A program made the position numbers and the translations under genes. Source: Sphingomonadaceae bacterium (lineage in GTDB: Bacteria > Pseudomonadota > Alphaproteobacteria > Sphingomonadales > Sphingomonadaceae). Taken from it: DNA of 53,708 bases. This document shows, one piece after another, positions 9,895 through 15,383 of this stretch. How positions within the stretch are numbered: position 1 is the stretch's first letter; every line of letters begins with the position of its first letter. Under the pieces are notes generated by a model that saw nothing but the letters and a program-made list of their open reading frames with translations, searched no databases and had not been told where the DNA came from. The stretch spans positions 1 to 53,708 of the forward strand of contig JANXUP010000178.1 in assembly GCA_025356175.1 (NCBI GenBank), written 5' to 3'.

Positions 9895-10497
9895 TCAAGC
9901 CCTAGGCGCCACCCGCCGGTAACTCAGCGCTTCGGCCACGTGGATGCGCCCGATCCCCTCGTTGCCTGACATATCCGCAATCGTCCGCGCCACGCGTAGC
10001 ATCCGGGTGTAGCCGCGCGCGGACAGGCGCATCGCTTCGGCGGCTTGCAGCAGGAGCTTGCGGCCCGGTTCGTCCGGTGTGGCGTGGAGTTCGAGCATTT
10101 CACCACTCAGGTCGGCATTGCTGCGCATCTTGGTTCCGGCAAGCCGAGCGGTCTGGATCGCGCGCGCAGCCGCAACCCGCGCGGCGACTTCGGCGCTGCC
10201 TTCGGCGGGGGGAGGCAGGCCGAGATCGGCGGCGCTGACCGGGTCGACATCGACATGGAGGTCGATCCGGTCGAGCAGGGGGCCACTGACCTTCGACTGG
10301 TAATCCGCCGCACAGCGCGGCGCGCGGCTGCAAGCCAGCGCCGGATCGCCAAGATGTCCGCAGCGGCACGGGTTCATCGCCGCGACCAGCTGCACCCGCG
10401 CCGGGAAGGTCACATGCGCATTGGCCCGCGCGACATCGACCACCCCGGTTTCCAGCGGTTGGCGCAGCGAATCGAGCACCGCGCGCTGGAATTCCGG
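9895..10497 (-). pseudogene. comM: comM (yifB) 3' fragment: C-terminal part of Mg-chelatase-like AAA+ ATPase
   Basis: About 200 codons of the C-terminal half of ComM/YifB. They begin at PEFQRAVLDSLRQPLETG and include FPARVQLVAAMNPCRCG (sensor region), SGPLLDRIDLHVDV and the Mg_chelatase_C domain ending AEALSYRRVAPRA. Upstream residues read from the same ORF come from the island. The matching N-terminal fragment lies 4.2 kb away on the same strand. ComM is a hexameric helicase promoting branch migration during natural transformation. The ATP-binding part is missing, so the gene is inactive. Confidence 0.92.
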
Positions 10498-10591: not shown

Positions 10592-11530
10592 CTAAGTTGC
10601 GTGGTTCACCCTGCCCGCAACAGTCCAAGTGATTTCCTGAACATTGTCGCCTTTCAAGGGCCGGTCAGTGTGACGGATAATCCCAATCTCCCAAAGGTGG
10701 CTGGTCATATGTTCGTCATCACCGAAAATGTCCTGATACTTGGCATGGCCATAAATGAAGAGACGGCCCGCGCCCGAAAAAATCGAGTCGATTTCCGCCA
10801 AAGTGAGACGGGTCTGTTGGCTCCAGATTTCTTGGCCCGGCCCGACAATAGACCTCACCGAATCGGGAGCAAAGTTGGTCTGTATTTTCTCAAGTTGCAA
10901 AGTGTTTACCCCCCAAAATGGGGTTTCGATAAAGACAAGATTCCGGGTTGGTGTACCGCCAAAGTTTTTCCAAATAATTCGGATTTCGATGAAAGTCGTT
11001 TCGTCTACAACAATGAATTTCCAAGTGATTCCTGTTGGAGAGAACCAGGGGCGCAAAGCCATCGTAGAATTGCGATCATTGCGATCTGCAATCTCATTGG
11101 CCATCAGCATGGCTTCAGTTGCCTTGCCGGTGTCTTCGACGGCCTCGCGAGTAAGGACAATTTGCTTGTAGAGGAAGGCGGTGCCGACCGCAGTTATGAG
11201 GACCGACGCAAACGACGCGACGACCATCCAAAACGCCCAAAGCGCGCTGGCCTCTTGGGCCGCGAGATCGCGTATCTCATGGTCTTGGCCGGTGGCGGGC
11301 TTTGGGTTTGCTATGGCGCGTTCAACCGGGCCGGGAAGGCCCGAAATATCTGGCAGACTTTGGGATGGGCCAGCGTAGTCGCCATTTCCGGCTTGGTCGC
11401 TAGCTACTGCCTGATATTGCTTATGGTCGGGGCTGTATAGCGAACCATAATAGGCCCCGGTCCCGAGCGCGACAAATAGGGCAGTTAATCCCGCAATTGC
11501 AGCGAGGATGCTCCGATAACCTCTAAGCAT
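10592..11530 (-). CDS. hypothetical membrane protein, island passenger
   Basis: A 312-residue protein with two membrane segments: residues about 9-30 (LAAIAGLTALFVALGTGAYYG) and about 98-122 (WAFWMVVASFASVLITAVGTAFLY). These are followed by a TREAVEDTGKATEAM helix and a C-terminal domain beginning RPWFSPTG. This layout recurs in many small hypothetical proteins of sphingomonads and other proteobacteria; function unknown. Its start lies inside the end of the DUF6471 gene (46-bp overlap), consistent with a two-gene operon. Lower GC than the chromosome. The plus-strand ORF over the same bases is a shadow. Confidence 0.65.
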   Translation of the reverse strand: MLRGYRSILAAIAGLTALFVALGTGAYYGSLYSPDHKQYQAVASDQAGNGDYAGPSQSLPDISGLPGPVERAIANPKPATGQDHEIRDLAAQEASALWAFWMVVASFASVLITAVGTAFLYKQIVLTREAVEDTGKATEAMLMANEIADRNDRNSTMALRPWFSPTGITWKFIVVDETTFIEIRIIWKNFGGTPTRNLVFIETPFWGVNTLQLEKIQTNFAPDSVRSIVGPGQEIWSQQTRLTLAEIDSIFSGAGRLFIYGHAKYQDIFGDDEHMTSHLWEIGIIRHTDRPLKGDNVQEITWTVAGRVNHAT

Positions 11531-11724
11531 TGCAGCAAGAACGCAGCCGTGAAGCCGCCCCGGCTGATCTTGTTGTTGAGGTTGCGCTCGTTCTCCGACA
11601 CGCCGATTCCCGCAAGCTTTTCAGCCAGTTCCGCATAGGTGATGCCCCGCCGTTTCAGCTCCGCTTTTAGCAGGTTCTTTGCGCGAGTCTCGAACTCGAC
11701 TGTTGCTGCGTCGGCCTTGGCCAT
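11485..11724 (-). CDS. DUF6471 domain protein (small helix-turn-helix-like)
   Basis: A 79-residue protein matching DUF6471 closely: FETRAKNLLKAELKRRG, then ITYAELAEKL, ERNLNNKISRGGF and FLLQCLEVIG. The fold looks like a Cro/HTH DNA-binding domain, so a regulatory role is likely but unproven. GAGG lies eight bases before the ATG at 11724; a GTG three codons earlier is an alternative. It is divergent from the IS1595-type transposase, with about 100 bases between, and precedes the membrane passenger. The neighbourhood suggests control of the element's own genes. Confidence 0.8.
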   Translation of the reverse strand: MAKADAATVEFETRAKNLLKAELKRRGITYAELAEKLAGIGVSENERNLNNKISRGGFTAAFLLQCLEVIGASSLQLRD

Positions 11725-11825
11725 GGGGGTCACCTCAAAATATCATCAATTCCGATGATATACACCATTGACTTTGCCGATGTAAACCATCATATCTTGT
11801 GCATAACACCACTGGATATGATGAT

Positions 11826-12320
11826 ATGGCACAGCACTTTCTCCTTTCCGCCAAGGCTCGCACGATCAGCCTCAAGGCCGTCTATCAAATGGGCGAGGCC
11901 AAGGCTTACGATCTGTTCCGCTCGCTTCGCTGGCCGGAGACGGAAGGCGAGGCGGTTTGCCCTCGTTGCGGCTGCACCGATGCCTATGACATTCCTACCC
12001 GGCGCAAGTTCCAGTGCCGCGCCTGCGGCCACCAATTCAGCGTTACCAGCGGCACGATCTTTGCCGGTCGCAAGCTGGCTTTCACCGATTTGCTGGCTGC
12101 AATCGTGCTGTTCGTGAACGGCGCGAAGGGTGTTTCTGCGCTGCAAATCAGCCGTGACCTCGATTGCCAATATAAGACCGCTTACGTGCTGTGCCACAAG
12201 CTGCGCGAGGCTATGGCGCTTGAGGACAAGGGCCAGACGCTGGAGGGCGAAGTCGAAGTGGACGGGGCCTATTTCGGTGGCCACATGCGCCCTGCCAATA
12301 ATCGCGAGAACCCGAAGGAC
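11826..12320 (+). pseudogene. IS1595-family transposase, 3'-truncated
   Basis: About 165 codons remain. They start MAQHFLLSAKARTISL, then a zinc ribbon (CPRCGCTDAYD and CRACGHQFSVTSGT) and the beginning of the ISXO2-like DDE domain (VEVDGAYFGGHMRP, first catalytic Asp). Homology stops after NRENPKD. The usual basic stretch and the remaining catalytic residues are absent, and the frame runs into a serine-recombinase fragment. An upstream in-frame ATG (11799) is in the track, but the ATG at 11826 matches the family start. The truncated enzyme cannot be active. Confidence 0.88.
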
Positions 12321-12485
12321 AGCATTTATCGACTCGACCCTCATCGGGCGGCGACGGTACGGGAAATTTTCCGGCTTGCGACCAGCGGCATGGGCAAGCA
12401 CTTAATCGCTTCGACGCTTAACCAGCGGCAAGTAGCGACTTGGGTGCACGGCAACCGCCGGGCAAACGGCTGGCAGCCATCCTAT
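12321..12485 (+). pseudogene. internal fragment of a large serine recombinase
   Basis: About 55 codons in frame with the transposase remnant: DPHRAATVREIFRLATSGMG, HLIASTLNQRQVATWV and GWQPSY. This matches the part of the recombinase domain just after the catalytic core in large serine recombinases. Both flanks are lost: the transposase abuts on the left and the antisense of the resolvase on the right. It is a trapped remnant with no start of its own. Confidence 0.75.
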
Positions 12486-12845
12486 AAAGCCGCGTTCCAA
12501 ATCGGCTACCATAGCCAGTACCGTCACCAGCAAGGACCCGGTAGCATCCCTAGTAGAGAAGGCTGGTTCGAGCACCGTCAGGGTTGCGCCCTTGGATTGA
12601 AGGTCGTGTACGATGTTCAGCACGTCGCGGGTGCTGCGCCCAAGCCGATCCAGCTTGACCACGACCAACTCATCACCCTCGCGAAGGAATTCTAGCAGCA
12701 AGGCCAGTTCTTCACGTCCTTCTCTCGTACCCGCGCTGGCCTTCTCAGCACGCACGATGGTGCAGCCAGCTTCCTTAAGGCGTACCTGTTGAAGCGCGTG
12801 GTCTTGGTCGGCTGACGAAACCCGAGCGTAACCGTATTTGGCCAT
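12402..12845 (-). CDS. Tn3-type serine resolvase, C-terminally truncated
   Basis: The catalytic domain is complete to about residue 121: YARVSSADQDHALQQ with the catalytic Ser, VVVKLDRLGRSTRDV, then TGSLLVTVLAMVADLERGFI. After that the frame reads through the antisense of the recombinase fragment (GWLPAVCPAV), so the helix-turn-helix tail that binds res is missing. Full-length relatives have about 190 residues. The ATG at 12845 begins MAKYGYARV; the longer track start is unlikely. A three-dyad res-like region lies directly upstream. Without the tail, site-specific resolution is improbable unless another copy supplies it. Confidence 0.85.
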   Translation of the reverse strand: MAKYGYARVSSADQDHALQQVRLKEAGCTIVRAEKASAGTREGREELALLLEFLREGDELVVVKLDRLGRSTRDVLNIVHDLQSKGATLTVLEPAFSTRDATGSLLVTVLAMVADLERGFIGWLPAVCPAVAVHPSRYLPLVKRRSD

Positions 12846-12871
12846 GCGTATTGCCTCCCCCGTAACAGATA

Positions 12872-12950
12872 GGTGGACCAGCGCTTTCCACCGTAACATA
12901 TATGGGTATTATACCCTTAAGTTACAAGTAGGCTGTAACATCAACTTGTA
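12872..12950. promoter_or_regulatory. res-like recombination site of the resolvase (three dyads)
   Basis: Three inverted repeats lie side by side upstream of the resolvase start: GGTGGA...TCCACC (12872-12892), GTAAC...GTTAC around GGGTATTATACCC (12893-12925), and TACAAGT...ACTTGTA (12923-12950, 28 bp with a central TA). Three dyads with the 28-bp crossover-type site farthest from the gene recall Tn3 res, though the centre spacing (about 27 bp) is shorter. The dyads may also autoregulate the resolvase promoter. Confidence 0.6.
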
Positions 12951-13106
12951 TCGCAGGGGCACACCGTAAAGGTACTGACCACGACAATCGTGGCGTGTTT
13001 CCTGCTGACAAACTATTCCTTGGATCCGGGTTCACCGACCTGTATTGGGCTGAATTGCCCGGCAGCCATTTCTAGTACGGTGTCGGAACAGGAGGGGGCT
13101 GGCGCC

Positions 13107-13343
13107 ATGCTGCAATTGGTCGGTTTTATCGCAACTCTGATGCTCTTCGTGAAGGGGCTAGAACTCCAAGCTACTGGCCGGACTAAGGAGGCTGCTCATC
13201 GCGCGAATTTTTACGTGGCCGCAGCTATCGCGATACTCGGTGCGGTGCTTTTCTCTTACGCTCTCGTGGTGGCAGGTAACGAGGCAACTGCTAACATGGA
13301 ACGGATCCAGAGCAGCTTCGCTCCCCCCACGAGGCCGTGGTAA
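13107..13343 (+). CDS. hypothetical small membrane protein, island cargo
   Basis: A 78-residue product with two hydrophobic segments, about residues 2-17 (LQLVGFIATLMLFVKG) and 35-55 (VAAAIAILGAVLFSYALVVAG), and a short soluble tail. GGAGGGG lies about ten bases before the ATG at 13107 and decides this start over the longer track ORF, whose extra N-terminus is not family-like. It converges on the 418-residue unknown gene. No family recognised. Confidence 0.55.
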   Translation: MLQLVGFIATLMLFVKGLELQATGRTKEAAHRANFYVAAAIAILGAVLFSYALVVAGNEATANMERIQSSFAPPTRPW

Positions 13344-13370
13344 GACGCGCTATGGAGCACTCTTGTTTCA

Positions 13371-14627
13371 TCAGGTGGGCTGGTCGGCATCAATACCGCC
13401 CGGCAGGAGCGGGAAGCGGGAGTGCAGACTGTAAACCGTACCATCCCGGTCACGCGCACGGTTGGGTGCACGTATGATCACGTCCAGCGACTCCAACTGT
13501 CCTGCCTCATGAGTCGTTATCATTGCAAGCCGCCCTTTACCGACGCGGATATGTCGGAACTGGCAGAGGTGGTTGATGACCTCTTTACGTCGTTCGTAGG
13601 TGGTGATCACGCATGAAACCAAGGCTGCTAGTTCACCGAAACTGCTATTTCCAACCAGCAGATGCTGTCGCCTGTTAGGCCAAGTGGACCTTAGTATGCG
13701 ATTCATCCGACGGGCCGCGTCGTCGGCCAATACGCGCAGTCGTTGCCGGGTGTCACCAGATGCCGAATCGCGGACTGCGCGGGACACATTTTTCAGGTAC
13801 CGGACCTCGGCTCTGATTCGGTCACCACCACGGGAATAGAACACCGCGTTAGTGGTGTCGGTAGCAAGTAGCGGAACGGTTACCGTGCGGTATCCGTCCT
13901 CATCGCCCGCCCTCACGCTGTTAAACTCAGTCTGACTGCCGCCCTGCACACCAGTATAAAAATCAGTGACCTGTAGGACAGGTTCGTCAGCGCAGAAGTC
14001 ACTGTAAATCTCGATCTGCCTGACGCTAACCAAGTTGAACTGCCCGTGACCGTCCCTTTGCGCATGGCCGGGGATTGCGCCGAACAGTGCCAAGCTGACC
14101 AACGCGACAGCCCCGTCTAGAATGCGGGCCGCATCATCAATCCAATGGTATGGCAGTGCACCGGGGTGCAATAATTCGGCGGGGGTGAAGTAGTTGCCTT
14201 GTCGGTTGGCCCGGCTAGTTGCACAGACCGACGGTGCGACGTGTGTTATGGTGATCTGGGACGCATCAATGTCCGGTCGCAATGCCCGAACCCGAGTCGG
14301 ATTTATGAGCACTGTCGCCGTGACTGCCATGCGTGCGGGCTGCGCCGCAGTCGGCTCGCCGAGGAGCAACTGAACTTCCAATAGCCACCCGTGGTGATCC
14401 GACACATCGCGCAAGCGAAGTCGACCGACGCCGTCATTTGCCCACCTGAAACCTCGGGGCAGCCGCCCCTGAAACGGTGTACGACCGCGCACAAGGTCTG
14501 ACATCACGTCAGCCCTTAACCGGTGACCAGCGAAGGCAAATTCACCCCGACACACGAGTTGAACTCGGTCCACCATGAGGTCACCCGCCTCGACCTGTGT
14601 CGTCGTGCGCCAGTCAGGGAACGCCAA
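13371..14627 (-). CDS. unrecognised 418-residue protein, island cargo
   Basis: A TTG start is supported by GGGAGG six bases upstream; an internal ATG (MVDRVQLV) is the alternative. The sequence has normal globular composition, no signal peptide and no clear membrane segment except a weak one near LDGAVALVSLALFGA. Recognisable landmarks are MVDRVQLVCRG, RGFRWANDG, FTPAELLHPG, RIRAEVRYLKN and QFRHIRVGKGR. I cannot assign it to a family. A short run (DRIRAEVRYLKN after a central variable part) faintly recalls replication initiators of small phages or plasmids, but this is a guess. It diverges from the comM N-terminal fragment's end by about 120 bases. Confidence 0.65.
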   Translation of the reverse strand: MAFPDWRTTTQVEAGDLMVDRVQLVCRGEFAFAGHRLRADVMSDLVRGRTPFQGRLPRGFRWANDGVGRLRLRDVSDHHGWLLEVQLLLGEPTAAQPARMAVTATVLINPTRVRALRPDIDASQITITHVAPSVCATSRANRQGNYFTPAELLHPGALPYHWIDDAARILDGAVALVSLALFGAIPGHAQRDGHGQFNLVSVRQIEIYSDFCADEPVLQVTDFYTGVQGGSQTEFNSVRAGDEDGYRTVTVPLLATDTTNAVFYSRGGDRIRAEVRYLKNVSRAVRDSASGDTRQRLRVLADDAARRMNRILRSTWPNRRQHLLVGNSSFGELAALVSCVITTYERRKEVINHLCQFRHIRVGKGRLAMITTHEAGQLESLDVIIRAPNRARDRDGTVYSLHSRFPLLPGGIDADQPT

Positions 14628-14744: not shown

Positions 14745-15383
14745 GAGCAGGTTGTGTCCGCCCGCTGCGGCAATTTCGAGCGCACGTTTGGCGCTTTCCT
14801 GGCCCTTCACCTGCTTGAGGTCGGGTCCAAAGCCCGGCTCCTGCGCCACGCCCGGTGCCGGTTCGGCAAGCTGCTGCGTGCCCTTGAGATGATTAAGCAA
14901 GCTGACCAGATTGGGCGCGGCGAGGATCGGGATGCCGCTGGCCCAGCGCGCCTCGGTTCCTTGCGCGGCGGGGCAGATCAGGCCTTTGTCCTGCCCGCTG
15001 GCATGGAGCGCGGCGAGCAACACGCCGGGGCTGGCGATGATCCGCCCGTCGAGTGACAGTTCGCCCACCGCGATAAAGTCTTGCAGTTGCTCGGAATCGG
15101 TGACCCCCATCGCGGCGAGCAAGGCCAGTGCGATCGGCAAATCGTAGTGCGAACCTTCCTTGGGCAGATCGGCCGGCGACAAGTTGATCGTGATCCGCTT
15201 GGGCGGCAGCGATAGCCCCATCGCGGCGAGCGCGGAGTGAACCCGTTCCTGGCTTTCCTTGACCGCCTTGTCGGGCAGGCCGACCACGTTGAAGCGCGGC
15301 AGGCCGGGCGCGATCTGGCACTGCACTTCGACGCCGCGCGCCTCCAGCCCCAAATAGGCGACGGTCTGAACCAGCGCGACCAA
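14745..15383 (-). pseudogene. comM: comM (yifB) 5' fragment: N-terminal part
   Basis: About 213 codons. They start VALVQTVAYLGLEARGVEV and contain the ChlI (lon protease-like) N-terminal domain (FNVVGLPDKAVKES, RITINLSPADLPKEG, LDGRIIASPGVL) and the linker to AAA+ (KGQESAKRALEIAAAGGHNLL). The native sequence stops just before the expected GPPGSGKS Walker A motif. The frame then reads KLKPIAPTFVRVS from the island and ends. The only start in frame is TTG. The C-terminal fragment lies 4.2 kb downstream on the same strand. Confidence 0.92.

What the first reader, a model, noticed from the sequence alone, without database searches (positions are those of the whole stretch)
12872..12950. Three-dyad res-like site upstream of the truncated resolvase
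Three inverted repeats are packed directly upstream of the resolvase start, with centres about 27 bp apart. The one farthest from the gene is 28 bp long (TACAAGT/ACTTGTA arms) with a central TA, like a crossover site I. In Tn3 res the three subsites are 28, 34 and 25 bp, but spacing is wider, so this may be a compact variant.
Basis: partly seen in the sequence, partly recalled or inferred. Interest (0 to 1): 0.6.

Follow-up and report, generated by a model that had tools for sequence, protein, structure and literature searches.

The report
Orphan res site beside broken resolvase
The DNA just upstream of a broken resolvase gene is a normal-length, Tn3-like resolution site (a place where a recombinase cuts and rejoins DNA), not the compact three-part one first proposed; its relatives across the Alphaproteobacteria share an extra protein-binding box that the classic Tn3 and gamma-delta sites lack.

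Summary
The three dyads are really in the sequence and are more than chance, and the region is a res site. The subsites were drawn in the wrong register, however.

Upstream regions of about 60 related resolvases show one layout. Site I is a 30-bp dyad on a GGGTRYACCC core. An extra half-site (h2) sits in the I-II linker. Site II is centred about 53 bp from site I. Site III lies next to the start codon and has only its right arm. In the window this maps to 12976-12861, minus strand. A profile built without the window finds it at 12975-12856 (E = 1.4e-9 and 1.7e-11) and nowhere else in the window.

The other two dyads lie at the centre of site II and across the II/III border. Their pairing in relatives is at or near chance.

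The resolvase keeps residues 1-121, lacks its DNA-binding domain, and has no close homologue in the assembled genome, so this res is probably a relic.

The wider point of interest is h2: conserved, co-varying with the recognition helix, and not seen in five gamma-delta/Tn3 res sites. No binding was tested.

The parts
12947..12976 (-). res site I (crossover site), 30 bp; centre between 12962 and 12961 (CGGTG|TGCCCC); left arm AGTACC 12976-12971, right arm GATACA 12952-12947
   Evidence: Aligned with GGGTRYACCC-cored site I of homologues; left-arm peak at -15 and right-arm peak at +9 in independent loci. Window core is degenerate: 2 of 5 core pairs, 4 of 6 arm pairs
12934..12940 (-). h2: extra half-site TGTTACA in the I-II linker, same orientation as a right arm
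   Evidence: Offset +22 from site I centre in most relatives; replicated in 28 independent loci; not seen in five gamma-delta/Tn3 res sites
12892..12926 (-). res site II, 35 bp: left arm TGTAAC 12926-12921, right arm TGTTACG 12898-12892; centre 12909, about 53 bp from site I centre
   Evidence: leave-one-out profile match
12861..12885 (-). res site III region; right arm TGTTACG 12867-12861; no left-arm box detected in the family
   Evidence: Pairing in homologues 1.47 of 6, chance 1.5
   Evidence: Pairing in homologues 1.97 of 6, chance 1.5
12483..12845 (-). truncated serine resolvase (residues 1-121; catalytic S10 kept; end of helix E and HTH missing; frame runs on to 12402 in foreign sequence)
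   Evidence: PF00239 E=9.4e-30; gamma-delta resolvase in PDB E=8e-19; alignment with full-length homologues
12339..12473 (+). fragment resembling the 'Recombinase' domain of a large serine recombinase, abutting the resolvase break
   Evidence: PF07508 E=0.0019, below the curated cut-off, positions 1-40 of 102

Best explanation
Positions 12976-12861 (minus strand) are a tripartite, Tn3-type res site of the form shared by alphaproteobacterial resolvases, left beside a resolvase gene that has lost its DNA-binding domain. In an intact relative, resolvase dimers would bind TGTNAC-type boxes at sites I, II and III of two directly repeated res sites. The accessory sites II and III would build a synaptosome, and the paired site I's would be cut at the two central bases (here GT in CGGTG|TGCCCC) and exchanged, resolving a cointegrate or multimer. 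Shown here: the layout, its conservation, the spacing, and the co-variation of box sequence with the recognition helix. Inferred: binding, cleavage and resolution. In this genome the site is probably a relic.
For: A profile from 5 close or 16 wider homologues, window excluded, hits only 12975-12856 (-) with E = 1.4e-9 and 1.7e-11; every other match in the window has E above 0.3. Fixed half-site offsets from the site I centre in about 31 nonredundant loci, replicated in 28 nonredundant loci from two other orders with the register set without IL, IR or h2: IL 3.9, IR 4.3, h2 4.4 of 6, background 1.5. Site I-II spacing is about 53 bp, or about 63 bp in L004, L006 and L054, one helical turn more. 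Box triplet goes with recognition-helix residues: SRM with GTG/GTT, GRA with GAG, ARS with CGG, SRG with TGA or similar; mutual information 2.21 bits against at most 1.13 in shuffles. Homologues sit in Tn402-like tniA-tniB modules, Tn3 transposons and plasmids. A five-turn I-II spacing, variable from 4 to 7 turns with phasing important, is the rule for Tn3 res (PMC12217951).
Against: In the window the site I core is poor (2 of 5 core pairs against 3.8 on average in homologues) and site III has no left box, so activity is doubtful. The window's own resolvase cannot be tested for matching specificity because its recognition helix is gone. No binding data exist.
Confidence: 0.9

Rival explanations
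1. A compact res with three subsites at about 27-bp spacing.
For: The dyads exist and exceed chance.
Against: Dyads 2 and 3 are not paired in relatives, and dyad 1 is formed by opposed boxes of adjacent subsites.
Confidence: 0.03
2. An operator/promoter region that only regulates the resolvase, not a recombination site.
For: In relatives a TTGACA-like -35 box lies at the centre of site II and a -10-like box follows h4 (seen in the upstream sequences), so repression by the resolvase is likely, as in Tn3.
Against: A pure operator would not need the conserved palindromic core and fixed outer arms 53 bp upstream, nor insertions of a whole helical turn between sites I and II.
Confidence: 0.05
3. 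Chance or private palindromes in a decaying, AT-richer intergenic stretch.
For: Dyad 2 is not shared with relatives; a weak terminator-like score falls on it.
Against: The leave-one-out profile match at E about 1e-9 to 1e-11.
Confidence: 0.02

Closest known systems
Tn3 / gamma-delta res (three subsites, 28-22-34-5-25 bp)
   Same: Upstream of the resolvase gene with site III next to the start codon; sites I and II centred about 53 bp apart; site II 34-35 bp; Tn3/gamma-delta-like resolvase.
   Different: Site I 30 bp (arms at -15/+9, not -14/+8), GGGTRYACCC core instead of an AT-rich one, an extra half-site at +22 in the I-II linker, and no left box in site III.
SGI1 resolution system (PMC12217951)
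   Same: Tripartite Tn3-like res beside a resolvase on a genomic island; crossover dinucleotide other than AT; weakly symmetric box III; it too was disabled.
   Different: There In104 interrupts the res itself and the resolvase is intact; here the res is continuous and the gene is truncated. No linker half-site is mentioned in the passages read.
Sin resH / beta six
   Same: Small serine resolvases; in Sin site II the half-sites are direct repeats, and here h1/h2 are also direct repeats.
   Different: Sin uses two sites and a DNA-bending protein; here a full site II of inverted boxes plus a site III arm is conserved.
Tn5053/Tn402 tniR-res
   Same: Close relatives of this resolvase (L064, L068) stand next to tniA and tniB, with the same res layout in L064.
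   Different: No tni gene lies beside the window's resolvase.

Membership tests
Tn3-type tripartite res | Lies directly upstream of a small serine resolvase gene, with site III gene-proximal | tested here: met
Tn3-type tripartite res | Site I and site II centres about five helical turns apart | tested here: met
   52.5 bp in the window; about 53 (or about 63) in relatives
Tn3-type tripartite res | Site I is an inverted pair of resolvase boxes with a central crossover dinucleotide | tested here: met
   Family level: IL and IR peaks; in the window weak, 4 of 6 arm pairs
Tn3-type tripartite res | Site II is an inverted pair of boxes, about 34 bp | tested here: met
   TGTAAC...TGTTACG, 35 bp, 12926-12892
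Tn3-type tripartite res | Site III is an inverted pair of boxes, 25 bp | tested here: not met
   Only the right box is detectable; no left-box peak within 33 bp upstream of h5 or 30 bp
Tn3-type tripartite res | No further resolvase box in the I-II linker | tested here: not met
   h2 at +22; absent in five gamma-delta/Tn3 loci
Tn3-type tripartite res | Supports resolution by the cognate resolvase | not testable with these tools
   Needs a reporter assay; the local gene lacks its DNA-binding domain
Tn3/gamma-delta resolvase family | Catalytic domain with Ser10 and sequence similarity to gamma-delta resolvase | tested here: met
   PDB gamma-delta resolvase E=8e-19; PF00239 E=9.4e-30; S10 invariant
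Tn3/gamma-delta resolvase family | C-terminal helix-turn-helix | tested here: not met
   Missing in the window after residue 121; present in homologues as PF02796
Sin/beta two-site res | Two binding sites, site II with directly repeated half-sites | tested here: not met
   Site II boxes are inverted and a third region is conserved

The most novel reading that the evidence does not exclude
Alphaproteobacterial res sites form a distinct variant in which the left box of site III has been lost and a resolvase box in the I-II linker (h2) gained. That keeps six boxes per res but rewires which DNA segments the resolvase DNA-binding domains hold. For instance, the free domain of the site III dimer might clamp the I-II linker, a bend that the Tn3 synaptosome model leaves without directly bound protein (PMC9943657).
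Probability: 0.3. Interest if true: 0.55.

Novelty: new variant of a known kind. Interest (0 to 1): 0.38.

Why it matters
The local site itself is an ordinary relic. What it led to is more useful: one res layout shared by plasmid, Tn3-like and Tn402-like elements across the Alphaproteobacteria, with a conserved box that the textbook Tn3 site lacks and a clear relation between two or three recognition-helix residues and three bases of DNA. That gives a ready set of orthogonal resolvase/res pairs for testing how the resolution complex is wired, and a profile for finding res sites, which are also targets of res-hunting transposons.

Tried and rejected
Compact-res reading: rejected by comparison. 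RNA element: no Rfam match in 12300-13400. Terminator or promoter as main function: only weak consensus matches. Left box of site III at any offset within 30-33 bp of h5: not found. h2 as a general feature of Tn3 res: not seen in five gamma-delta/Tn3 loci, although one of them (L077) has GTTACA by itself at +24. Resolvase or res in the other comM islands: none found. F plasmid as control: record not held. IMG/VR relatives at about 41% identity: most showed no recognisable layout and were not used. Literature searches for a described linker half-site found nothing in the held library, which lacks most subscription journals; the paper on the Bartonella resolvase/res pair could not be read, so prior description there is possible.

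Full report
WHAT WAS CHECKED. The three dyads reported at 12872-12950 are in the sequence on the strand of the resolvase. They are TACAAGT/ACTTGTA (12950-12923), GGGTATAATACCC (12916-12904) and GGTGGA/TCCACC (12892-12872). Four dyads with arms of 6 bp or more lie in the 79 bp. Dinucleotide shuffles give 0.48 on average and none of 1000 reached four.

THE GENE. ATG 12845 opens a serine resolvase on the minus strand (PF00239, E = 9.4e-30; gamma-delta resolvase in the PDB, E = 8e-19). Against full-length homologues it keeps residues 1-121 and then runs into foreign sequence. The end of helix E and the helix-turn-helix are missing. A weak match to the 'Recombinase' domain of large serine recombinases abuts the break on the other strand. 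The assembled genome (about 90% complete) has no other match to this resolvase at E <= 1e-20.

COMPARISON. Homologues at 64-75% identity (L002-L006), many more at 45-63% and plasmid-borne ones were fetched and their upstream regions aligned. Every clear case has the same order: a GGGTRYACCC core, a right-arm box, a second box in the same orientation (h2), a left-arm box followed by A(A/T)TAGGGTTGA, a right-arm box, and a last right-arm box close to the start codon.

REGISTER. Relative to the centre of the GGGTRYACCC core, the boxes lie at -15 (left arm of site I), +9 (right arm of site I), +22 (h2), +35 to +37 (left arm of site II), +63 to +66 (right arm of site II) and +94 to +97 (right arm of site III). 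The site I-II centre distance is about 53 bp, the five-turn spacing of Tn3-type res (PMC12217951). L004, L006 and L054 have about 10 bp more between h2 and site II, one helical turn. In the window the same map gives site I 12976-12947, h2 12940-12934, site II 12926-12892 and the site III right arm 12867-12861.

INDEPENDENT TESTS. First, a profile built without the window (5 close or 16 wider homologues) matches the window only at 12975-12856 minus, with E = 1.4e-9 and 1.7e-11; other matches have E above 0.3. Second, in a fresh set of loci from two other orders the register was set from the core and the three right-hand boxes only. In the 28 nonredundant loci that passed the threshold, the peaks at IL, IR and h2 reappeared as the three highest: 3.9, 4.3 and 4.4 of 6 against a background of 1.5. 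Third, the box sequence differs between loci but agrees within a locus (4.44 of 6 against 3.63 when boxes are exchanged between loci). It also follows the recognition helix: SRM with GTG/GTT, GRA with GAG, ARS with CGG, SRG with TGA (mutual information 2.21 bits, shuffles at most 1.13). Shared ancestry inflates this last number, but several classes occur in more than one order.

Dyad 1 is the right arm of site I and the left arm of site II facing each other across the linker, which is why it looks palindromic and is partly conserved (3.6 of 7 pairs). Dyad 2 sits on the centre of site II and is private to this locus (1.5 of 6, chance 1.5). Dyad 3 straddles the II/III border (2.0 of 6). The 27-bp spacing arises because the dyads were drawn half a unit out of register.

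HOW IT MOST LIKELY WORKS. [quoted passage not shown] Relatives stand in Tn402-like modules with tniA and tniB, in Tn3 transposons and on plasmids without a transposase next to them, where the job would be cointegrate or multimer resolution. In the window the core of site I is degenerate and the gene is broken, so a relic is the best reading.

SAME AND DIFFERENT. It works like a Tn3 res and meets the main membership features: position, spacing, site I and site II pairs, resolvase family. It departs in three tested respects, at family level: site I is 30 bp, there is an extra box h2 in the linker, and the left box of site III is not detectable. Five gamma-delta/Tn3-group res sites fetched as controls show the canonical 28-bp site I and nothing conserved at +22. 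Weak symmetry of box III has a precedent in SGI1. No description of a linker box was found in the papers held, but the library is incomplete and the Bartonella res, an alphaproteobacterial system already in laboratory use, could not be examined.

LIMITS. No binding or recombination was measured. About a quarter of fetched loci did not give a confident register and were left out; some loci with a clear register lack h2 (for example L126 and L130). The first set of loci used h1 and h2 when the register was chosen, so only the left-arm peak is independent there; the second set has no such circularity for IL, IR and h2. The gamma-delta/Tn3 control set is small, and Tn21-type res sites were not examined.

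Noticed in passing
window 9895-10497 and 14746-15383 (minus strand): The island holding the resolvase interrupts a comM/yifB-like Mg-chelatase gene and about 268 bp of the gene present in a relative (L174) are missing. Islands of about 4 kb at the same left boundary occur in two congeners (L172, L173), so this gene looks like a recurrent insertion site in the genus.
   Followed up: partly
L171 (G000 contig C175, 1-4140): A second, different comM copy with its own island lies in the same assembly, 93% identical to window 11486-12312 and with a complete IS1595-like transposase; it may be a paralogue or a second strain in the assembly.
   Followed up: partly
window 11799-12317: IS1595-like transposase gene truncated after about 173 codons and fused to a large-serine-recombinase fragment and antisense resolvase sequence in one open frame.
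   Followed up: partly
window 11488-11733 (minus strand): DUF6471 protein (E=1.4e-31) carried inside the comM island; the DNA of this stretch is also found in the comM islands of relatives.
   Followed up: no
L004, L006, L054 upstream of the resolvase: About 10 bp more between h2 and site II than in other relatives, one DNA helical turn: natural spacing variants of the res site.
   Followed up: yes
upstream of about 59 alphaproteobacterial resolvases: Residues around the recognition-helix arginine go with the first three bases of the box (SRM-GTG/GTT, GRA-GAG, ARS-CGG, SRG-TGA, SRK-GAC, SRQ-GTC): a possible specificity code.
   Followed up: partly
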